DNA from: a virus
Direction: 5' to 3' (one strand)
IMG/VR virus record: IMGVR_UViG_3300042562_002309
Location: 1 to 62,922 of that record
Length of the DNA stretch: 62,922 nucleotides
This document shows positions 4,707 to 56,661 of this stretch, piece by piece. The position numbers and the translations under genes were made by a program. The notes under the pieces were generated by a model. That model ran no database searches. It was not told the DNA's origin and saw nothing but the letters and a program-made list of their open reading frames with translations. Position 1 is the stretch's first letter. Each line of letters opens with the position of its first letter.

Positions 4707-4817
4707 ATGATGCTTAGATACGAACAACTTAATGAAAAAAAAATGTGGTACGTCGTGATTGGAATAGACAAAAGGTCTAAACTAACTAGAGAAGAAATAC
4801 AAAATTTAATATCATGA
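4707..4817 (+). CDS. small protein, 36 aa
   Basis: Reads MMLRYEQLNEKKMWYVVIGI and continues for 16 residues to TGA 4815-4817. The start lies 5 nt after AATATATAAA (4692-4701), and the stop overlaps the next ATG as ATGA, which supports real translation. The N-terminus LRYEQLNEKK is a short form of the recurrent MK-x-L-K-x-F...NE motif (see findings). Confidence 0.55.
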   Translation: MMLRYEQLNEKKMWYVVIGIDKRSKLTREEIQNLIS

Positions 4818-5443
4818 AATACTTAAAGAGATATAACGAAAATTTTAAAGGTTTTGCTAATGTTGATACTAGTCAAGATGCTTTCAATAGATGTCAAAAC
4901 TTATCAGAGGACGAATTCTTAAAAATATTAAGAGAAAATTGTAAAAACTTTTCACTTAGTAATGACCTTTTATATAGAAATAAAGAATATTCTGGTGATT
5001 TTCAGTTATTTAAACCATATAAAAGAAGAACAAACCCAGCAACTTTTCCAAAATTCTTTAATGGAATAGAGGATGATTCAAACTACCCGGTTAAAAGAAA
5101 GTTATCTTTGATAGGTGGTACAAATCCATCATTCATATCAGAGTTAGATCCGGATTTAGCGGTTTATATAGTTATACCGTTTGATAATTCTAAGATTGTT
5201 TTTTGTCCGGTTCCGGATTTATTATTTTTAGACGATAGAACAAAAGAAGAATATGTGAGTGGTGAGCCAGTTAGTGATAAAAATTTTGTGATGGTTGAAT
5301 ATACAAAAGACTTTAAAATTCCTGAGGAAGATTTAAGTAAACTACCCGGTCATAAATCCTCTCATTCGGGTTATGAGTTTTTTACATCCAGTAATTGTTT
5401 ACTAATTCATGAATCATATATAGATATTTTAAACCAAATTTAA
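4814..5443 (+). CDS. hypothetical protein with MK-x-L-K N-terminal motif, 209 aa
   Basis: Begins MKYLKRYNENFKG, one of the clearest members of the recurring N-terminal motif. The remainder is a mixed alpha/beta protein with segments such as LAVYIVIPFDNSKIVFCPVPD and a C-terminal SCLLI-like strand region ending DIL. No catalytic motif is recognised. It is coupled to the 36-aa gene by ATGA and followed directly by a strong terminator. Possibly a virion-packaged protein, by inference from the N-terminus. Confidence 0.65.
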   Translation: MKYLKRYNENFKGFANVDTSQDAFNRCQNLSEDEFLKILRENCKNFSLSNDLLYRNKEYSGDFQLFKPYKRRTNPATFPKFFNGIEDDSNYPVKRKLSLIGGTNPSFISELDPDLAVYIVIPFDNSKIVFCPVPDLLFLDDRTKEEYVSGEPVSDKNFVMVEYTKDFKIPEEDLSKLPGHKSSHSGYEFFTSSNCLLIHESYIDILNQI

Positions 5444-5500: not shown

Positions 5501-5710
5501 TCATTCTTCTAAGGTTACGAAATATCTTACATCTTGAAGCTCATAGTAAGGCATGTGCCTGAGTCCTTTATCGTTGGTGAAATCTATGATGTTTCCAAAC
5601 TGATCCATTAGAACCACGTACTTTTTTCCGTATGTAAAGCTTTCACAATAGCTGACGCAGACAATGATATCACCTCTTTTGAGTAGTTTAGTAGAAGATG
5701 TATTTTTCAT
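5501..5710 (-). CDS. hypothetical small protein, 69 aa
   Basis: Unrecognised, mostly beta in character (KRGDIIVCVSYCESFTYGKKYVVLMDQFGNIIDFTN). The layout, with GDIIVC followed by Y-G-K-x-Y-x-V, recalls SH3-like small phage proteins, but no family can be named. It overlaps the 5688-6002 gene by 23 bp on the same strand, so they are co-transcribed. Confidence 0.55.
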   Translation of the reverse strand: MKNTSSTKLLKRGDIIVCVSYCESFTYGKKYVVLMDQFGNIIDFTNDKGLRHMPYYELQDVRYFVTLEE

Positions 5711-6002
5711 CCTCTTTGATGCAATAGATTGAGATAGGATATATTCTCAAATCGTCGTTGCTTTCGTCAATCATGAATCTCATGGCACCATCTATAATCT
5801 CAGGGTTGATTATTTTTATAGTAGCATGGTGAAGACCTTTTAATACCGTATAGGAAATTTCATCCATTTCTTCGGTAAGGACCATATAGTTTTCCTTTCC
5901 TTGTATTTTACCATTCAATCCTTCGATAAAGTATGTCTTTTCGATTATTGACCTTAGAGCGTCTGTTGCCGAGCACTCTACTTTAATTTCATGTTTTACC
6001 AT
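5688..6002 (-). CDS. hypothetical protein, 104 aa
   Basis: Unrecognised soluble alpha/beta protein with charged surface segments. First of a two-gene minus-strand transcript with 5501-5710. No signal peptide, no membrane segment and no motif that could be named. Confidence 0.6.
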   Translation of the reverse strand: MVKHEIKVECSATDALRSIIEKTYFIEGLNGKIQGKENYMVLTEEMDEISYTVLKGLHHATIKIINPEIIDGAMRFMIDESNDDLRIYPISIYCIKEDEKYIFY

Positions 6003-6297: not shown

Positions 6298-6675
6298 TTA
6301 TGGTAATATATTTTTTATTTCTTCGGAACCATCAGGATTGGCGGAGTGTATTACGTATTCAGGGAATTTAAAACCATTTTCATTACAGAAATTTAACAAA
6401 AACTTAGCACAATGCAATCCAGTATAAACCCGATTTTCATTTAGATCAAACCATTCTTCGAATGGTAGTTCTGCCTTTAGTTCTTCAACGTCTGCCAAGT
6501 CATAATCGAATGCAACCAAATCAGGAACACCATTGTTCTCGATCCATTTTACGAACTGACCATAAGAACGAACGATATCCCATTCTTCGTGATAGATACG
6601 ACAGTCTGTTCTTCGCCACATATAAGTAGCACAATCTATGGGTATCCGCCAATCGTCTAAAAATAACCGTTTCAT
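6298..6675 (-). CDS. cyclic-phosphate processing receiver-like (cREC) protein
   Basis: 125 aa. The pattern LFLDDWRIP at the start, then VRSYGQFVKWIE, PDLVAFDYDL and a C-terminal HSANPDGSEEI, is that of the cREC group of receiver-domain proteins. These have been linked by comparative genomics to processing of cyclic phosphate ends in RNA repair. A paired function with the RNA ligase at 42457 is possible but inferred. A TATGTTTG promoter element (reverse strand, 6680-6687) is only 4 nt from the start, so the transcript is nearly leaderless. Confidence 0.7.
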   Translation of the reverse strand: MKRLFLDDWRIPIDCATYMWRRTDCRIYHEEWDIVRSYGQFVKWIENNGVPDLVAFDYDLADVEELKAELPFEEWFDLNENRVYTGLHCAKFLLNFCNENGFKFPEYVIHSANPDGSEEIKNILP

Positions 6676-6687: not shown

Positions 6688-6708
6688 CGGACAAATTTTA
6701 ATATATAT

Positions 6709-6812
6709 AGTATAAGAACCGGGGGACTATGTCCCACTTTAGGACCGGTATAGTTTCAGCCCCAACGGGTACTATAAGAAAGCCACTGAATTCGCTACTC
6801 GGTGGCTTTCGC
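6709..6812 (+). ncRNA. structured noncoding RNA with terminator
   Basis: No ORF fits here, yet the GC content rises sharply and three helices nest or stack. ACCGG (6718-6722) pairs with CCGGT (6745-6749) and encloses GGGAC/GTCCC (6723-6727/6731-6735) plus the bulge ACTTTAGGA. ATAGT (6750-6754) pairs with ACTAT (6771-6775) and encloses CCC/GGG with an AAC loop. A terminator-like stem follows: AAGCCACTGA (about 6780-6789) with TCGGTGGCTT (about 6799-6808), then CGCTTTAT. Upstream lies TTTTAATATATATAGTATAA, possibly its promoter. It may be a free small RNA or the leader of the membrane gene downstream. No known RNA family was recognised. Confidence 0.6.
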
Positions 6813-6838
6813 TTTATAATATATATTGGGTGTTACTG

Positions 6839-7128: not shown

Positions 7129-8094
7129 ATGGAAAACACAGAACATATTTTAAAAGAAAATCCGGGAAGATTCGTACTTTTTCCGTTGAAGTACCACGAC
7201 ATCTGGGAGATGTATAAGACTGCCGAGCATTCATTTTGGACAGCCGAAGAGATTGACTTAGCTCAAGACTTAACTGACTGGGATGAAAAACTTAATGATG
7301 ACGAAAGACACTACATCAAAAATGTATTGGCATTCTTCGCTGCATCTGATGGTATCGTAAACGAAAACTTAGCAGAGAACTTTGTGAAAGAAGTTCAATA
7401 TCCAGAAGCGAAAAACTTTTACGGTTTTCAAATCGCCATGGAGAACGTTCACTCTGAGACTTACTCTCTTTTGATTGATACTTATATCAAAGATGAAAAA
7501 GAAAAAGATCATTTGTTTAACGCAATCGATACTGTTCCTTCTGTAAAGAAGAAAGCAGATTGGGCTTTAAAGTGGATCGATTCTGAATCATTTGCAGAAC
7601 GTTTAATAGCATTTGCTGCAGTAGAAGGTATCTTCTTCTCAGGATCATTCTGTTCTATCTTCTGGTTAAAGAAAAGAGGTTTAATGCCTGGTTTAGCTTT
7701 CTCAAATGAGTTGATTTCAAGGGATGAAGGTTTACATTGTGAGTTTGCTTGTTTGTTACATAACAAATACATTACAAACAAAGTTAGTCAAGAAAGAATT
7801 ACTCAGATAATAACAGAAGCAGTTGAGATTGAAAAAGAGTTTGTAACAGATTCTTTACCGGTATCTCTTATTGGAATGAACGCAAAGTTGATGCAGCAAT
7901 ACATCGAGTTCGTTGCTGACTATTGGTTAAGTGAACTTGGTTGTAAGAAATTCTATAACGCCGAAAATCCTTTCGACTTTATGGATATGCTTTCTTTGCA
8001 AAACAAATCAAACTTCTTTGAGAAAAGAGTTTCTGAATATCAAAAAGCATCTGACAAGAATATCGACTTCGATAACATGGATGATGACTTCTAA
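7129..8094 (+). CDS. nrdB: ribonucleotide reductase small subunit (class Ia)
   Basis: 321 aa, the usual length for the R2 subunit of the eukaryote-like class I type. Metal ligands are in place: Asp43 (WTAEEID), Glu105 and His108 ([10 protein letters not shown]), Glu166 (AAVEGIFF), and Glu200 and His203 (RDEGLHCEF). The radical tyrosine is Tyr112. The C-terminus NMDDDF would bind the large subunit. The enzyme makes the diferric-tyrosyl radical needed to reduce ribonucleotides for phage DNA synthesis. No nrdA lies in this window, so it is elsewhere in the phage genome or taken from the host. The AATATATAAA element (7100-7109) lies 19 nt upstream. Codon use is smoother than in its neighbours (ATC/ATT rather than ATA for Ile). 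Confidence 0.97.
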
Positions 8095-11619: not shown

Positions 11620-12930
11620 ATGACAGGAAAAGTAAACGAACGCGTGAGCTACAAAGTTAAAGACATCTCTCTTGCAGAATTTGGAAGAAAAGAGATTAGA
11701 CTTGCAGAGGCGGAGATGCCAGGATTGATGGCAATACGTAAAGAATACGAAGGAAAACTTCCTTTAAAAGGAGCTAGAATCGCAGGATGTCTACACATGA
11801 CAATCCAAACTGCAGTTCTAATCGAAACACTTGTAGAATTAGGTGCAGAAGTATCTTGGAGTTCTTGTAACATCTTCTCTACGCAAGATCACGCAGCTGC
11901 GGCAATTGCAGAAGCTGGTATTCCAGTATATGCTTGGAAAGGAATGAATGAAGAAGAGTTTGATTGGTGTATCGAACAAACTATCAACGCATTTGAAGGT
12001 GGTAAATACCTTAATATGATTTTAGATGATGGTGGTGATTTAACAAACTTAGTATTTGACAAATACCCACACTTAGCAGAAGACATTAAAGGTTTATCTG
12101 AAGAAACTACTACAGGAGTTCACAGACTTTATGAAAGAATGAAAAATGGAACTCTTTTATTGCCAGCAATCAACGTAAACGATTCTGTTACTAAATCTAA
12201 ATTTGATAACAAATACGGATGCAAGGAATCTTTAGTAGACTCTATTCGTAGAGCGACTGACGTTATGATGGCAGGTAAAGTTTCTGTTGTATGTGGATAT
12301 GGCGATGTAGGGAAAGGTTCGGCGGCTTCTCTACAGGGTGCTGGTGCAAGAGTTATTGTTACTGAGATTGATCCTATCTGTGCTTTACAAGCCGCGATGG
12401 ACGGATTTGAAGTAAAGAAACTTGACAATGTAATCCATTTGGCAGACATCGTAGTTACTGCAACAGGAAACAAAGACATTATTAAAGGTAGACACTTTCT
12501 TGCGATGAAAGATAAGACTATCGTTTGTAATATTGGACACTTTGATAATGAGATTGATATGACTTGGTTAAATAAAAGCTATTCTAAGATTGAAGTTAAA
12601 CCACAAGTTGATATCTATGATGTAGAAGGAAAAGACGTTATCGTATTGGCAGAAGGAAGACTTGTGAACTTAGGTTGTGCTACAGGACATCCATCATTCG
12701 TAATGTCAAACTCTTTCACAAACCAAGTGCTTGCTCAGTTAGAGCTTTGGAACAACTCTGATAAATATGAGAATAAAGTTTACACTCTTCCTAAGCATTT
12801 GGATGAGAAGGTGGCTAGACTTCACTTAGAGAAGATTGGTGTTGAATTGGACGTACTTTCTAAAGAACAGGCTGATTATATCGGTGTTGCGGTAGAAGGA
12901 CCATACAAAAACGACGAATACAGATACTAG
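11620..12930 (+). CDS. ahcY: S-adenosylhomocysteine hydrolase
   Basis: 436 aa, full length for the family. It cleaves S-adenosylhomocysteine to adenosine and homocysteine using bound NAD. Visible hallmarks are [30 protein letters not shown], the substrate-site LDDGGDLT, the NAD-binding [10 protein letters not shown] near residue 225, and the C-terminal KNDEYRY that closes the neighbouring subunit's cofactor site. The gene ends 1 bp before a cytosine-5 DNA methyltransferase, suggesting it removes the inhibitory by-product of DNA (and sugar) methylation. Codon use is host-like and smoother than in neighbouring small genes, which may reflect acquisition from a bacterium or high expression. Phage-borne SAH hydrolase is unusual. 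Confidence 0.97.
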
Positions 12931-12931
12931 G

Positions 12932-13777
12932 ATGAACGTTCTTTCTTTATTTGATGGTATGTCTTGTGGACACATTGCTTTAGACAAGCTTGGTATTGAA
13001 GTAGATCAATACTTTGCATCCGAAATAGAAGAAGCTTCTATCAAAGTTACTATGGCAAACTATCCCAATACCATTCAAATAGGAGACGTAACCAAAGTGA
13101 ATGGAAAGGATCTTCCGAAAATCGACTTGTTGATTGGTGGAAGTCCTTGTCAATCACTATCTAATGCAGGAAATGGCTCTGGTTTTGATGGCAAAAGTGG
13201 ATTGTTCTACGAATGGGTAAGGCTTTTGAAAGAATGCCAACCAAAATACTTCATGCTCGAAAACGTCAAGATGAAAAAGGAATGGCAAGATGTTATTACG
13301 AATATCTTAGGTGTCGAGCCTATTTTAATCAATAGTAATCTTTTTTCCGCCCAGAATCGTCAGAGACTTTATTGGACCAATATTCCAATGGATTCTTTAC
13401 CTGATGACAAAGAGGTTTACATCGAAGACATATTGGAGAGCAGCTTTGATTCAAAGTATTGGCTACCTGAAAAGAATGCCGGTTTGCTAAGCAAGAAAGT
13501 CGATATAACCGGTGCTCCTGATGTTTGTTGCATAGATGTTTACAACAAGCGATACAAGAAGGATAGAAGAAGTCCTACTCTCACGCATCCTTGTCATAAC
13601 TCTTTAAGGCTTTTGCAGGATGGCAAGTTCAGAAAGCTGACACCTATCGAATGTGAAAGGCTTCAGACGGTTCCGGATGGATACACAGAAGGAGTTTCCG
13701 ACACGCATCGATACGCGATGCTTGGAAATGGCTGGACTGTGGATGTCATAGCGCACATATTTAAAAACCTCGTTTAA
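12932..13777 (+). CDS. DNA (cytosine-5) methyltransferase
   Basis: 281 aa, a compact C5 methyltransferase. Motif I is LSLFDGMSCG. Motif IV is GGSPCQSLS with nucleophile Cys73. Motif VI is LENV with Glu110. Motif VIII is QNRQRLYW. Motif IX is around LTPIECERLQTVPDGY, and motif X is YAMLGNGWTVDVIAHIF. The short target-recognition region (about 150-200) suggests limited specificity. Likely uses are protection from host restriction or marking of phage DNA; no partner restriction gene is present. It begins 1 bp after ahcY and ends at a terminator. Confidence 0.95.
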   Translation: MNVLSLFDGMSCGHIALDKLGIEVDQYFASEIEEASIKVTMANYPNTIQIGDVTKVNGKDLPKIDLLIGGSPCQSLSNAGNGSGFDGKSGLFYEWVRLLKECQPKYFMLENVKMKKEWQDVITNILGVEPILINSNLFSAQNRQRLYWTNIPMDSLPDDKEVYIEDILESSFDSKYWLPEKNAGLLSKKVDITGAPDVCCIDVYNKRYKKDRRSPTLTHPCHNSLRLLQDGKFRKLTPIECERLQTVPDGYTEGVSDTHRYAMLGNGWTVDVIAHIFKNLV

Positions 13778-13816: not shown

Positions 13817-14110
13817 ATGAAGATATTAAGATTCGAAGAGTTTGAGATGACAAACGAGGCACTACCCAATCAAAAGACGGTGGATCAATTGAAAAAGGTT
13901 ATGAAGATGTCTGCTAGAACAGATATTGGAAATCGTATTTCAGATATGAACAAGCAGGGTGCCAACATACACTATATGCAAAATCCTATTGAGACTGGTA
14001 TTGAATCTAAAGAAGACTACGACGAGCACAACAAGAAGTTCGTTTCTTCTTGGAACCTAAAAGGCATGCTAGGACCTTTCAAAGGAGAAGACAATAAACA
14101 AAACAAATAA
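13817..14110 (+). CDS. hypothetical protein with MK-x-L-R-F-E-E-F motif, 97 aa
   Basis: Starts MKILRFEEFEMTNEALPNQK, which fits the recurring N-terminal motif with NE at 13-14 as a possible prohead-protease site. The remainder is polar, lysine-rich and largely helical, with no recognisable fold. AATATATA (13805-13812) lies 4 nt upstream. Possibly an internal virion protein, by inference. Confidence 0.6.
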   Translation: MKILRFEEFEMTNEALPNQKTVDQLKKVMKMSARTDIGNRISDMNKQGANIHYMQNPIETGIESKEDYDEHNKKFVSSWNLKGMLGPFKGEDNKQNK

Positions 14111-14152: not shown

Positions 14153-14476
14153 ATGAAATATTTAAAAACATTTGAAGGCTACAACGACAAGGGTTTAGCA
14201 AGAGGGATTGCGGAAGACTTACTACCACAACTACAAAAGATTAGAGACGAAAAAGGAATCTTTACCGTAAGCATGTTCGACAACTTTATGGAAGAAAGAA
14301 AAGCTGATATGAGATTGACAGACGAAGTCATTGCAGAACTTGTTAATTTAGGATTCCAATTCGACAGCGAAGACGATGATTCGGAAGATTTTGATGAAGA
14401 TGAATACGACGATACCGAATACGGAGACAGAGATAATTTTGAAGGATATCCAGGAATGGAATATGGCCTAAACTAA
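14153..14476 (+). CDS. hypothetical acidic protein with MK-x-L-K-x-F motif, 107 aa
   Basis: Starts MKYLKTFEGYNDKG, close to the start of the 4814 protein although the rest differs. Residues 15-72 form a helical domain (AEDLLPQLQKIRDEKG, DEVIAELVNLGF). Residues 73-100 are extremely acidic (runs of D, E and DDDSEDFDEDEYDD), resembling a DNA-mimic or nucleic-acid-shielding tail. AATATATAAA (14141-14150) is 2 nt from the ATG, and a terminator follows. Confidence 0.65.
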   Translation: MKYLKTFEGYNDKGLARGIAEDLLPQLQKIRDEKGIFTVSMFDNFMEERKADMRLTDEVIAELVNLGFQFDSEDDDSEDFDEDEYDDTEYGDRDNFEGYPGMEYGLN

Positions 14477-38175: not shown

Positions 38176-38207
38176 AAAAAAGGTCTACTTTAAGTAGACC
38201 TTTTTTT
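38176..38207. terminator. intrinsic terminator after dnaJ
   Basis: Near-perfect palindrome AGGTCTACTTTAAGTAGACCT flanked by A and T runs, ending the minus-strand grpE-dnaJ transcript. The dnaJ stop lies at its edge. (Motif longer than the stem core GGTCTACTT/AAGTAGACC.). Confidence 0.92.
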
Positions 38208-39270
38208 AAACTTTAAAGTTATTAGACTCTTTCAACTTCTCTAAAATATGTTGTTCGTCCAAATCTATATTCTTAGGTATTTTTATTGATATCTTTACAT
38301 ATAAATCTCCTAAGCCATAGTGTATATCGGGAATTCCTTTACCACCAATCCTTGCAGTCTTACCATGTTCAGTACCCGGTTCTATATACAAAGGTATTTC
38401 ACCATGTGGTGAAGAAACTTTAATATGTGCACCACATATGGCATCTATAATCGAAATAGTCTTTTCTACTATAATATTATTACCTTCTCTTTTATATGAA
38501 AAGTTCTGTGCCTCCTCAACCAATATATTCAAATCACCCGGAACACCATCTCTAACATTGTTACCGAATCCCTGCATTGTCAACTGCATACCCGTGGAAA
38601 CACCTACAGGTATTTCGACATCAACAACCTGTTCCTGTAGCTGAGTTCCTTCTCCATGACAATGACCACATCGGTTTTTTATTATACTTCCGGTACCGCT
38701 ACAATCGGGACATGTCATTTCCGTCCTCATCTGACCAAACGGAGTGTTCTGAACTACGATTCTATGTCCGGTACCATTACACGTAAGGCATTCTCTTACA
38801 TCAGTTCCACCTTTTCCGTCACAAGGATCACATTTTATACTCCTTTTGTATTTTAGTTTTTTAGTACAACCTTTGAGTATTTCATCTATGTTCAAAACAA
38901 CTTTTATTCTTAAATCAGAACCTTTAGATTGTCTTCTTTGTTGTCTTCCGCCTCTGTTTCCGAAAACGTCTCCAAACTGGGAGAATATATCGTCCATTGA
39001 GAATCCATGACCGCCTCCACCAAAAGGGTTTCCACCTCCGCCAAAAGGGTTCCCTGTAGCGGAACCATAGTTGTCGTAGTTTGACTTTTTGGATGAATCC
39101 GAAAGTACGTCATATGCCTCTGCAGCATCTTTGAATTTAGTTTCTGCATCTGGATTTCCGGGGTTCTTATCCGGATGCAACTCCATCGCTTTCTTTCGAT
39201 AAGCCTTTTTTATTTGGTCGTCAGATGCGTTTCTATCTACTCCCAAAATGTTGTAGTAGTCTTTACTCAT
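38206..39270 (-). CDS. dnaJ: co-chaperone DnaJ (Hsp40)
   Basis: 354 aa with all classic parts: J domain with HPD at 32-34; Gly/Phe-rich linker (72-95); four CxxCxGxG zinc-finger repeats at 147, 161, 187 and 201; and two C-terminal beta-barrel domains with the client-binding region. It is slightly shorter than bacterial DnaJ (about 375 aa). It stimulates DnaK ATP hydrolysis and delivers substrates. It is the last gene of a minus-strand operon led by a 171-aa unknown gene and grpE. Together with dnaK at 44230 it makes a complete Hsp70 system. Its start overlaps the upstream gene by 4 bp. Confidence 0.97.
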
Positions 39271-44229: not shown

Positions 44230-46122
44230 ATGAGCAAAAATGTAATTATAGGAATTGATCTTGGGACAACAAATTCCTGCGTTTCCGTTGTAGAAGGTGG
44301 AGAACCAATCGTAATCAGTAACTCTGAAGGAAGAAGAACGACACCTTCAATAGTTTCTTTTTCAGGAACAGAAAGAAAAGTTGGTGATCCTGCAAAAAGA
44401 CAATCGGTTACAAATCCAAAAAACACGGTATACTCTATTAAAAGATTTGTCGGAAAAGACTATTCAGTTTGTACAGATGAGATAAAAAGAGTTCCTTATG
44501 AAGTTAAAAAATCAAAAACTGGAAATGTTCCTGTAGTGAACATCGACGGAAGAGACTACACTCCACAAGAACTTTCTGCAATCATTTTACAGAAAATGAA
44601 AAAAACTGCCGAAGACTACTTAGGACATGAAGTTACTAGAGCGGTTATCACGGTTCCTGCATACTTCGGTGACGCGGAAAGAACGGCTACTATTGAAGCA
44701 GGTGAAATCGCTGGTTTAAAAGTAGAAAGAATCATCAACGAACCAACTTCCGCAGCTTTGGCATATGGTTTAGACAAAAAGAACACAGACTCTAAAATCT
44801 TAGTATTTGACTGCGGTGGGGGAACTCATGACGTATCTGTATTGGAGATTGGTGATGGTGTATTCGAAGTAAAATCTACTGATGGTGATACTCACTTAGG
44901 TGGTGATGACTTTGACAACGCGATTATCACTTGGATGTTAGATGAATTCAAAGCTGAGCATTCTATGGACTTGGAAAAAGATCCTATGGCTTTGCAAAGA
45001 TTGAAAGATGCTGCAGAAAAAGCGAAGATTGAATTATCTTCTACATCTGAATCAGAAATCAACCTTCCTTATATCACCGCACAGGATGGAATTCCTTTAC
45101 ACTTTGTTAAGAAATTGACTAAGTCTAAGTTTGACCAAATGACTTCTTCTTTAGTAGATAGAGCGATTGCTTGTGCTAAGTCTGCTTTGAAAAATGCAGA
45201 ATTAAAAACAACAGATATTGATGAAGTAATCTTAGTTGGTGGTTCTACGAGAATCCCAGCAGTACAGGATGCGATTGAGAAGTTCATCGGTAAGAAAGCT
45301 AACAAATCAGTAAACCCTGATGAAGTTGTTGCATTAGGTGCTGCTATTCAAGGTGCTGTATTAAATGGTAGTATCACTGACGTTCTTTTATTAGACGTAA
45401 CTCCTTTATCATTAGGAATCGAAACAATGGGTGGTGTTTTCACTAAATTGATTGAAGCTAACTGTACAATCCCAACAAGAAAAAGTGAGACTTTCTCTAC
45501 TGCTTCTGATAACCAGCCATCTGTAGAACTTCACGTTCTTCAAGGAGAAAGAGCAATGGCTAAAGACAATAGATCTTTAGGGAAGTTCAACCTTGACGGA
45601 ATCATGTCTGCACCAAGAGGAGTTCCGCAGATATCGGTGACTTTAGACATTGACGCAAATGGCATCTTGTCCGTTTCTGCACAGGACAAAGCAACTGGTA
45701 AGGAAAACAAAATCAGAATTGAAGGTGGATCTCAACTTACAAAAGAAGAGATTGAGAAAATGAAAGCTGATGCAGAATTAAACGCAGAATCTGATAAAAT
45801 CGAAAAGGAAAGAGTTGAAAAGCTTAACCAAGCGGATACTCAAATCTTCCAAACTGAAAAACAGATGAAAGAATTTGACGAGAAGCTTACAGAAGAAGAT
45901 AAGTCTACATTAAAAACAGATTTAGATGCTTTAAGACAAGCACATGCTGATCAAGATGTTGCAATGATTGATGCAACTTCTGAAAAGTTGAACGAAAGCT
46001 GGAACGCAATCAGTACTAGATTGTACCAAGAAGGCTCTCAAGAAACTCAAAACGAAAGTACTAATACTGAAGCAAGTGGTAATGAAGAAGTAGAAGATAC
46101 GGATTTTGAAGAAATATCTTAA
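44230..46122 (+). CDS. dnaK: molecular chaperone DnaK (Hsp70)
   Basis: 630 aa, full length. N-terminal ATPase signatures [26 protein letters not shown] (His where the usual IFDLGGGTFDVS has Phe) and [14 protein letters not shown]. The interdomain linker is [14 protein letters not shown]. The substrate-binding domain follows and ends with the acidic DTDFEEIS tail. Residues are ordered as in bacterial DnaK. It is separated by 4 kb from grpE/dnaJ on the other strand, with its own regulatory-looking leader repeats and a terminator downstream. Codon use is host-like and more GC at third positions than neighbours, indicating strong expression or bacterial origin. A complete phage Hsp70 triad is exceptional. 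Confidence 0.98.
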
Positions 46123-50325: not shown

Positions 50326-50354
50326 AAAAATGCCGACATTTGTCGGCATTTTTT
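50326..50354. terminator. intrinsic terminator
   Basis: AAAAATGCCGACA/TGTCGGCATTTTT stem around TTT. It lies right behind the 50353-50910 gene. Confidence 0.93.
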
Positions 50355-50910
50355 ATTCGGTTTCTATTTCTAGTTTTTCGTCATCATCTCCAAAAGTTTC
50401 ATCAAGTTCTATTTTAAGGTCAACTAAGAACCCTTCATCAATATCCTTAATCTTTACATTCTTTGTCATCTGTCCAACAACTTCAAATGTGTCCAAATCA
50501 TATTTTTTAAATTTTATAAAACATTTTTCTATATCTTCAAATGAAAAGTCTGCCTCAGGATCTTTTGGCATACCGTCTTTCAAATCAATTAAAAGTAACA
50601 TGTTGTATGTTGCGTTAGCATCACTAAATTTTATAGTAATCGAATCGTATAGTTTAGAATACTTAGATATCTCGGAACTCTCCAACTGAACACCCAAATC
50701 TTTAAAAGTAAGTTTTTTACTCTTACCTTTCGACTTTGCTTTCATGATGGAAGAATTTCCTTCCTTTTCCTTTTCGTCTTCAAGATCTACTTGATCCTCA
50801 AACATCTTACTAATCTTCTTCTGAAGTTGTTTTAGTGCGGTCTCAATATAAGACTCTGGAGTATCATTGAACTCTTCGTTTATAAACTCTATAAATTTTC
50901 TAATCTTCAT
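50353..50910 (-). CDS. hypothetical protein with MK-x-x-K-F-x-E-F motif, 185 aa
   Basis: Starts MKIRKFIEFINEEFND, the clearest match to a T4-like capsid-targeting peptide, with FINE as a possible protease site. Residues 20-75 are helical and highly charged (KKISKMFEDQVDLEDEKEKE, then a SKGKSKK segment). Residues 80-170 form an alpha/beta domain (YDSITIKFSDANATYNMLLL; DLDTFEVVGQMTKNVKI). No known domain. Ends acidic. Confidence 0.62.
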   Translation of the reverse strand: MKIRKFIEFINEEFNDTPESYIETALKQLQKKISKMFEDQVDLEDEKEKEGNSSIMKAKSKGKSKKLTFKDLGVQLESSEISKYSKLYDSITIKFSDANATYNMLLLIDLKDGMPKDPEADFSFEDIEKCFIKFKKYDLDTFEVVGQMTKNVKIKDIDEGFLVDLKIELDETFGDDDEKLEIETE

Positions 50911-55909: not shown

Positions 55910-56110
55910 CTATTTGTTACATTCCAATATATTTGTGATTTTCTTCATTCTTGCCTCTCTTCTTTCTGTCATTATTTCAGAAATCATATCAGAGACTTGC
56001 TTTGATGTTATGATATAATTTCCATCACCGCTTCGACCTACTTTGTTTATATAGGCAGCAGATTGAAGAATCTTCTCATATAGATCTTTTTGGTACTGGC
56101 TATTATCCAT
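55910..56110 (-). CDS. hypothetical protein, 66 aa
   Basis: Helical and basic (MDNSQYQKDLYEKILQSAAY ... ERREARMKKI). It touches the nusG stop by one base and lies 3 bp before the thioesterase gene, so it is part of the same operon. Unrecognised; DNA- or RNA-binding is possible from its charge. Confidence 0.55.
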   Translation of the reverse strand: MDNSQYQKDLYEKILQSAAYINKVGRSGDGNYIITSKQVSDMISEIMTERREARMKKITNILECNK

Positions 56111-56661
56111 TATGCTTTCTTGTCGATTTGATTTACTCCAAGCTCTAGTAGTGTTATTCTTCCGAATACAGAAACCGCAACCTTTACTTTTTCTCCATTT
56201 ACCTGTTCAACCTTTCCTGCGAAAGTATTGAAAGGTCCGTCCAAAATCTGCACTTCTTCACCAACGATGAATTTTACTTCAACTTCAACTTCTTCTTTTG
56301 CTTTCTGTTGTTCACCAATCATTCTATTTACTTCCGTTTGAGTAAGCGGTAAAATATCACCCGATCTATTTGTTAGGAACCCTTGAGCACCATTCATACC
56401 TTTTAAGAAATATTTCAACTCGCCTACAGCGTTTGTTTCGATAAAGATATACCCTGGGAATTTTACCTTCTCTCTCTTTACTTTCTTTCCGTTTTTCAAA
56501 TAGAAAGAATTCTCGATTGGAACGATCACTCGTCCAAGCTTACCCATTAAATCACCTACAGCACCTTCGTTTGTAAGTCTTTCTCCTATTGATCGTTCTC
56601 GGTTGCTTTGAGCCCTTACCACATACCACTTCATCGTGGCTTCTTTTTCAACTATGTTCAT
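56110..56661 (-). CDS. nusG: transcription elongation factor NusG-like
   Basis: 183 aa, the size of bacterial NusG. NGN domain with MKWYVVRAQSNRERSIGERL and KVKFPGYIFIETNAVGELKY, and a C-terminal KOW with EEVQILDGPFNTFAGKVEQV and KVKVAVSVFGRITLLEL. ATG 56661 or the internal Met at 10 (56634) may be used; the latter gives a NusG-like start MKWYVV. It binds RNA polymerase and could act as a specialised NusG/RfaH-like antiterminator for phage operons (inference). It lies in the gp39-RNase H cluster. Confidence 0.92.
   Translation of the reverse strand: MNIVEKEATMKWYVVRAQSNRERSIGERLTNEGAVGDLMGKLGRVIVPIENSFYLKNGKKVKREKVKFPGYIFIETNAVGELKYFLKGMNGAQGFLTNRSGDILPLTQTEVNRMIGEQQKAKEEVEVEVKFIVGEEVQILDGPFNTFAGKVEQVNGEKVKVAVSVFGRITLLELGVNQIDKKA

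What the first reader, a model, noticed from the sequence alone, without database searches (positions are those of the whole stretch)
6709..6812. Strongly folded noncoding RNA at 6.7 kb
In an AT-rich genome this 100-nt stretch contains three helices with GC cores (ACCGG/CCGGT enclosing GGGAC/GTCCC; ATAGT/ACTAT enclosing CCC/GGG; and a terminator) and no coding frame. It lies between divergent genes with its own AT-rich promoter-like motif. I do not recognise the family. It could be a phage small RNA, a decoy for host CRISPR or tRNA-directed defence, or the leader of the damaged membrane gene.
Basis: partly seen in the sequence, partly recalled or inferred. Interest (0 to 1): 0.7.

Follow-up and report, generated by a model that had tools for sequence, protein, structure and literature searches.

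The report
Phage small RNA targeting host ribosomes
Many giant, T4-like bacterial viruses carry a previously undescribed small RNA whose exposed loops are the exact complement of one universally conserved spot in the bacterial ribosome (helices 69-71 of 23S rRNA), so it probably grips the host's ribosomes or their precursors during infection.

Summary
It is one member of a large RNA family absent from Rfam. I found about 200 members in viral contigs, mostly T4-like and often huge (up to 642 kb), usually one per genome, often beside nrdA or nrdB. Its parts are P1/H1, H2 and a terminator hairpin H3; H3 covaries massively (99% paired, 322 double changes, 0/500 shuffles).

What is invariant is the loops, and they are antisense to 23S rRNA helices 69-71. 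In the window, UUUAGGACCGGUAUAGUUUC pairs with E. coli 23S 1929-1910 (17/20), and the H3 loop UUCGCUAC pairs with 1937-1930 (8/8). The two segments abut exactly. Scanning phage contigs with the rRNA-derived 17-mer gave 63 contigs, only one being rDNA; two other conserved 23S 17-mers gave 0 and 2. Cultured Vibrio phages (PWH3a-P1 and kin) carry both elements too.

Best explanation: a trans-acting phage RNA that base-pairs with free or immature host 50S subunits. Pairing is well supported by sequence; the effect on translation or assembly is inference. CRISPR/tRNA decoy and mRNA-leader readings are not supported.

The parts
6696..6709 (+). promoter-like box TTTTAATATATATA just upstream of the RNA; resembles boxes upstream of nrdB and other window genes, and the T4 late promoter TATAAATA
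   Evidence: not tested for function
6713..6812 (+). the small RNA (5' end inferred; 3' end at the terminator-type hairpin)
   Evidence: (CM hit 6700-6825, E 1.1e-16)
6718..6749 (+). hairpin H1: P1 ACCGG 6718-6722 / CCGGU 6745-6749, enclosing a variable hairpin GGGAC 6723-6727 / GUCCC 6731-6735 and the loop CUUUAGGA
6738..6757 (+). antisense element 1, UUUAGGACCGGUAUAGUUUC: 17/20 identical to the complement of 23S rRNA 1929-1910 (helix 69 and the strand 3' of it)
6750..6775 (+). hairpin H2: AUAGU 6750-6754 / ACUAU 6771-6775 with inner CCC 6761-6763 / GGG 6767-6769; carries the conserved UAGUU
6778..6810 (+). hairpin H3, terminator type: GAAAGCCACUGA / UCGGUGGCUUUC; stem covaries through the family
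6791..6798 (+). antisense element 2, H3 loop UUCGCUAC: 8/8 complementary to 23S rRNA 1937-1930, abutting element 1's target
7129..8094 (+). nrdB (ribonucleotide reductase small chain), downstream neighbour; nrdA or nrdB is a recurrent neighbour of the RNA

Best explanation
It is a trans-acting, roughly 100-nt phage RNA ending in an intrinsic-terminator hairpin. Three hairpins present three antisense segments against one contiguous, universally conserved stretch of host 23S rRNA (E. coli 1910-1937): the H2 loop UAGUU against the helix-69 loop, CUUUAGGACCG against 1920-1929, and the H3 loop UUCGCUAC against 1930-1937. The most likely action is that it pairs with this region while it is exposed, in free 50S subunits or late 50S precursors. 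That would block maturation or intersubunit bridge B2a and so withdraw or reprogramme host ribosomes. Shown: the RNA family, its covarying scaffold, the abutting antisense loops, their recurrence in separate phage lineages, and the identity of the target in Bacteroidota. Inferred: transcription, actual pairing in the cell, and the effect on assembly or translation.
For: The conserved segments' longest antisense matches in rRNA fall side by side on 23S: CGGTCCTAA at 1920 and GTAGCGAA at 1930. For the window 20-mer, 17/20 match, reached by 3 of 20,000 shuffles; for the family consensus, 18/20, reached by 0 of 20,000. Over 80 representatives, every position 1920-1937 is 91-100% Watson-Crick or G-U. 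Of 84 distinct cores, 60 have their best antisense site in 16S+23S at helix 69, and 78 of 84 loops at 1926-1942. Scanning 2.9 million viral contigs with the rRNA-derived 17-mer gives 63 contigs, 1 of them rDNA; in 42 the second element TCGCTA follows although the search did not ask for it. Two other conserved 23S 17-mers give 0 and 2. Ten contigs carry the stretch uninterrupted, AATTTCGCTATCTTAGGACCGTTATAGTT, ahead of a strong terminator and, in the three loci read in full, behind a TATAAT-like box. Cultured Vibrio phages carry both elements in a gene-free gap. Bacteroidota hosts have the identical 23S stretch. H3 covariation: 99% paired, 322 double changes, 0/500 shuffles. Precedent: a PNA against helix 69 inhibits E. 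coli growth (PMC7038079), and helix-69 loop mutations block translation or 70S formation (PMC1190176).
Against: No transcript has been seen. Order is permuted: element 1 precedes element 2, although its target lies 5' of element 2's target, so simultaneous pairing needs a closed, pseudoknot-like complex. Both partners are self-structured. Simple duplex energies rank the site first for L019 and L125, second for the window, L004 and L118, but fifth for L088, among 730 rRNA windows. In subtypes with CCGGGACUAGUU, element 1 pairs with an extra bulge. Motif invariance inside the family is partly a product of motif-based searching. A lytic phage needs ribosomes, so a global block would be self-defeating unless timed or partial.
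Confidence: 0.62

Rival explanations
1. Guide RNA: it pairs with the same 23S stretch but recruits an enzyme (modification, cleavage or a host-shutoff nuclease), as eukaryal and archaeal snoRNAs do.
For: Bipartite complementarity with a sharp junction at 1929/1930. A cyclic-phosphate-processing receiver-domain gene (PF20274) is the divergent neighbour here, and by sequence reading also in L011, L043 and L049.
Against: The segment order is the reverse of a box H/ACA pocket; no C/D or H/ACA boxes are seen; neighbours vary between lineages, so no obligate enzyme partner is visible.
Confidence: 0.13
2. Shield: it covers helices 69-71 to protect ribosomes from a host defence toxin that cleaves there.
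For: The target is a known toxin- and drug-sensitive region (own knowledge: MazF-type cleavage of 23S near 1940); same pairing evidence.
Against: Masking a bridge helix would also stop translation; no such toxin in these hosts was examined.
Confidence: 0.08
3. Cis-acting 3'-UTR terminator or stabiliser of the upstream gene, with incidental rRNA complementarity.
For: 139 of 161 instances follow a co-directional gene, usually 20-45 nt before the core, often nrdA.
Against: 22 instances have a divergent upstream gene; usually one copy per genome; the loops rather than the stems are invariant; the rRNA match far exceeds chance.
Confidence: 0.05
4. DNA-level element: an attachment site in rDNA or a relic of an I-CeuI-type homing site, which recognises the same 23S stretch.
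For: The target stretch is the I-CeuI site (own knowledge); two contigs (L369, L373) carry a contiguous 25-nt copy with no terminator noticed.
Against: Segments are separated and permuted; stems covary; H3 is followed by a U-run in most members; 84,980 bacterial and archaeal genomes gave no hit for the family pattern.
Confidence: 0.04
5. Scaffold for an unknown phage protein that reads the loops; complementarity is coincidence.
For: Loops are invariant while stems vary, as in protein-binding hairpins.
Against: Coincidence would have to occur for two loops at abutting sites and again in separate phage lineages.
Confidence: 0.04

Closest known systems
T4 RNAC and RNAD (rnaC, rnaD), stable late RNAs of unknown function
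   Same: Small stable RNAs of T4-type phages. The 8-mer TCGCTACC (complement of 23S 1929-1936) occurs once in the whole T4 genome, in the loop of an invariant rnaD hairpin.
   Different: No significant CM match to T4; helix 69 ranks only 104th of 730 for rnaD by duplex energy; rnaD lies in a tRNA cluster, with no terminator hairpin of this kind noted. A lead, not homology.
Box C/D and H/ACA guide RNAs
   Same: Small RNAs with conserved segments antisense to rRNA; some guide modification in helix 69.
   Different: No C/D or H/ACA boxes seen, reverse segment order, viral, terminator-ended.
Antisense PNA against helix 69 (Kulik et al. 2017, cited in PMC7038079)
   Same: Targets the same helix by base pairing; inhibits growth.
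   Different: Synthetic; this is a natural structured RNA.
Trans-encoded bacterial sRNAs with intrinsic terminators
   Same: About 100 nt, hairpins, single-stranded seeds, terminator.
   Different: Seeds point to 23S rRNA, not mRNAs; no Rfam family.

Membership tests
New anti-H69 phage RNA family (defined here) | YUURGGRYCG core followed by hairpin H3 with loop (A)UUCGCUAC | tested here: met
   window CM hit E 1.1e-16; core 6738-6747, loop 6790-6798
New anti-H69 phage RNA family (defined here) | H3 stem conserved by covariation | tested here: met
   99% paired, 322 double changes against 85 in shuffles
New anti-H69 phage RNA family (defined here) | antisense to 23S 1910-1937 | tested here: met
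Any Rfam 15 family | gathering-score match | tested here: not met
   none in the window; only tRNAs in 12 related loci
T4 rnaC/rnaD | sequence/structure homology | tested here: not met
   CM R2 finds nothing significant in T4; duplex rank 104/730; one shared 8-mer loop
Box C/D or H/ACA guide RNA | boxes and guide order around the target nucleotide | tested here: not met
   boxes not seen on reading; element order reversed relative to an H/ACA pocket
CRISPR repeat / tracrRNA mimic or tRNA decoy | similarity to a repeat or a tRNA fold | tested here: inconclusive
   no tRNA, no Rfam match; conserved parts explained by rRNA complementarity. CRISPR repeats of the hosts were not searched
Intrinsic terminator | GC-rich hairpin followed by U-run | tested here: met
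   flagged by scan at 6794-6806; long stem; U-run weak in the window, strong in most relatives
Trans-acting antisense RNA | transcript pairing with target in the cell | not testable with these tools
   needs RNA-seq and crosslinking

The most novel reading that the evidence does not exclude
Several lineages of tailed phages, some perhaps independently, have evolved dedicated small RNAs that seize the ribosome by antisense pairing to 23S helices 69-71: a new class of viral anti-ribosomal RNA that acts on a target every bacterium shares.
Probability: 0.6. Interest if true: 0.95.

Novelty: categorically new. Interest (0 to 1): 0.87.

Why it matters
A natural RNA aimed at a universal, functionally critical ribosomal helix would be a new way for a virus to control translation or ribosome assembly. 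It may explain why the same loop sequences stay invariant across phages with different genomes. It also offers a hypothesis for stable T4-type RNAs whose function is listed as unknown (PMC3014915, PMC9697503). Because cultured Vibrio phages carry the elements, it can be tested directly.

Tried and rejected
Rfam at gathering and permissive thresholds: nothing. Sarcin-ricin-loop mimicry (AGGACCGG is also a sense match at 23S 2662): 8 nt for the window and L004, 13 nt in L018; dropped in favour of the antisense match. Phage-internal targets: complements of the loops are not enriched in 1.7 Mb of related loci. Isolate-phage blastn with three other family variants: no real hit. Tenacibaculum phages pT24 and Larrie, whose nrdB is closest among named isolates, lack the RNA. 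RM378, KVP40, S-PM2, T4 and two Vibrio phages (1.244.A, D506): no significant CM match. T4 rnaD as a homologue: suggestive 8-mer, but energy ranking fails. The second CM hit in G018 looks like chance on reading and the one in G002 is weak and was not read; the one in G009 looks real. The SRL control 17-mer was not found in five Bacteroidota 23S loci checked, so the PTC 17-mer (found in four of the five) is the fairer control.

Full report
OBSERVATION. The stretch 6700-6830 folds far better than shuffles (z -4.3), codes for nothing, lies between divergent genes, and shows the three helices described. No Rfam family matches. The window is a 62,922-base virus record of 33% G+C.

A FAMILY. blastn against phage records gave two huge uncultured phages, LR745206 (635 kb) and LR756502 (642 kb), with the same element. 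A pattern made from what the three shared gave 54 IMG/VR contigs; two half-patterns, each leaving the other half free, gave more than 100 further contigs. A covariance model built on 24 of these recovers all types with E from 1e-24 to 1e-7. In all, 166 instances in 165 loci were collected, and about 40 more came from a later rRNA-based search. Whole-record searches find a match in 21 of 24 records of 78-642 kb: one strong copy each. G009 has a second, divergent copy that looks real. A third huge phage, LR756504, carries a divergent copy found by the model alone, with no motif imposed. The family pattern has no hit in 84,980 bacterial and archaeal genomes.

WHO CARRIES IT. 25 of 28 records tested, including all three LR phages, encode a T4-type major capsid protein (PF07068; 23 over the curated cut-off), so this is largely a T4-superfamily feature. 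The window's nrdB is 72% identical to those of Tenacibaculum phages, which suggests Bacteroidota hosts.

ANATOMY. From 5' to 3': a variable first hairpin (in the window P1 ACCGG/CCGGU with a smaller hairpin inside); the motif YUUAGGACCG; hairpin H2 with GUU; and a terminator-type hairpin H3 with loop AUUCGCUAC. H3's stem changes freely but stays paired: 99% of cells, 322 double changes against 85 in shuffles, 0/500, and all slid controls far lower. Thus stems vary and loops do not: the loops carry the function. In loci with a divergent upstream gene, a TTAATATATA or TATAAATA-like box sits just before the RNA in most cases on inspection. In 139 of 161 instances the RNA follows a co-directional gene, mostly closely, in about 50 loci nrdA, so some copies may be processed from a 3' UTR.

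WHAT THE LOOPS SAY. Against E. coli 16S and 23S, the conserved core and the H3 loop, tested separately, have their longest antisense matches side by side: CGGTCCTAA at 23S 1920 and GTAGCGAA at 1930. Laid out, element 1 (CUUAGGACCGNNAUAGUU) is complementary to 1929-1910, covering the helix-69 loop and the strand after it; element 2 (UUCGCUAC) is complementary to 1937-1930. The two abut with neither gap nor overlap. Per position over 80 representatives (below 85% identity), Watson-Crick plus G-U pairing is 91-100% for 1920-1937. The window matches 17/20 in element 1 (3 of 20,000 shuffles reach this) and 8/8 in element 2; the family consensus 18/20 (0 of 20,000); L125 19/20. Letter conservation within the family is partly built in by motif searching; identity to rRNA is not.

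TEST WITH AN rRNA-DERIVED PROBE. I scanned 2.9 million viral contigs with TTAGGACCGTTATAGTT, the exact complement of 23S 1912-1928. 63 contigs matched; one is 23S rDNA. In 42 the second element TCGCTA follows downstream without having been asked for. Ten carry the whole stretch uninterrupted (AATTTCGCTATCTTAGGACCGTTATAGTT) ahead of a strong terminator; the three read in full (L379, L380, L420) have a TATAAT-like box upstream, and their 5' parts differ. Five follow a gene I read as a major capsid gene, and L398 is another context with a terminator. Only 6 viral contigs hold the junction TTTCGCTACCTTAGGACCG in the order found in rDNA. Control 17-mers from the sarcin-ricin loop and the peptidyl-transferase region gave 0 and 2 contigs; the first is the weaker control because it was not found in the Bacteroidota 23S loci checked. 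The same 23S antisense stretch, used as a blast query on isolate phages, found (besides mislabelled rDNA) cultured Vibrio phages PWH3a-P1, qdvp001, P018-4 and kin. In the three read, CCTTGGGACCGTTATAGTTATGGC lies in unannotated sequence, followed by a hairpin whose loop region is GUGUCGCUACC. The isolated blast E-value is weak (0.3); what counts is the second element.

MECHANISM. Shown: a conserved structured RNA gene and two or three loops antisense to one 28-nt rRNA stretch that is identical in Flavobacterium, Psychroflexus, Chryseobacterium, Pedobacter and Aquimarina. Inferred: pairing in the cell, most plausibly with free 50S or late precursors, where helices 68-71 are still mobile (own knowledge), and consequent interference with subunit joining or assembly. 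Precedents: a PNA against helix 69 inhibits E. coli growth (PMC7038079); helix-69 loop mutations inactivate ribosomes or impair 70S formation (PMC1190176). The permuted order of the two elements means a closed complex if both pair at once. The duplex-energy ranking is supportive but not decisive.

KNOWN OR NEW. Literature searches for a phage RNA aimed at helix 69 or complementary to 23S rRNA found nothing (open-access library only). T4's RNAC and RNAD are described as late RNAs of unknown function (PMC9697503, PMC3014915). rnaD has the only TCGCTACC in the T4 genome, in an invariant hairpin loop, but the duplex test fails, so I leave it as a lead.

VERDICT. An rRNA-directed antisense function is the best explanation by a wide margin; the physiological effect remains open.

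Noticed in passing
44230-46122 (+), 38206-39270 (-), 56110-56661 (-): The phage encodes its own Hsp70/DnaK (PF00012, E 9e-242), DnaJ and a NusG-like protein.
   Followed up: partly
6298-6675 (-); also L011, L043, L049: The divergent neighbour of the RNA is a cyclic-phosphate-processing receiver domain protein (PF20274, E 1.7e-16), a family linked to RNA end processing; similar proteins stand at the same place in three other loci by sequence reading.
   Followed up: partly
window 4814-5443, 13817-14110, 14153-14476, 50353-50910; many related loci: Many otherwise unlike proteins begin MK(H/Y)(I/L)K.FE.F.NE, which resembles the T4 capsid-targeting sequence: possible large sets of injected internal proteins.
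   Followed up: no
5688-6002 (-): A 104-aa protein without Pfam match recurs within four genes of the RNA in 17 loci.
   Followed up: no
11620-13777 (+): S-adenosylhomocysteine hydrolase directly followed by a C5 cytosine DNA methylase.
   Followed up: no
L369 2600-2642, L373: A contiguous 25-nt complement of 23S (TCGCTACCTTAGGACCGTTATAGTT) in a gene-poor stretch; no terminator noticed; function unclear.
   Followed up: partly
T4 NC_000866 71053-71171 (-), rnaD: Invariant hairpin CCGG-GUCGCUA-CCGG with the genome's only TCGCTACC, an 8-nt complement of 23S 1929-1936; rnaC nearby holds GAGTAGCG twice.
   Followed up: partly
L440 801-817 (Staphylococcus phage SpP, PP468606): Intergenic GACCGTTATAGTTACGG, a 17-nt complement of helix 69, upstream of a terminase gene; may be chance (E 4).
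   Followed up: no
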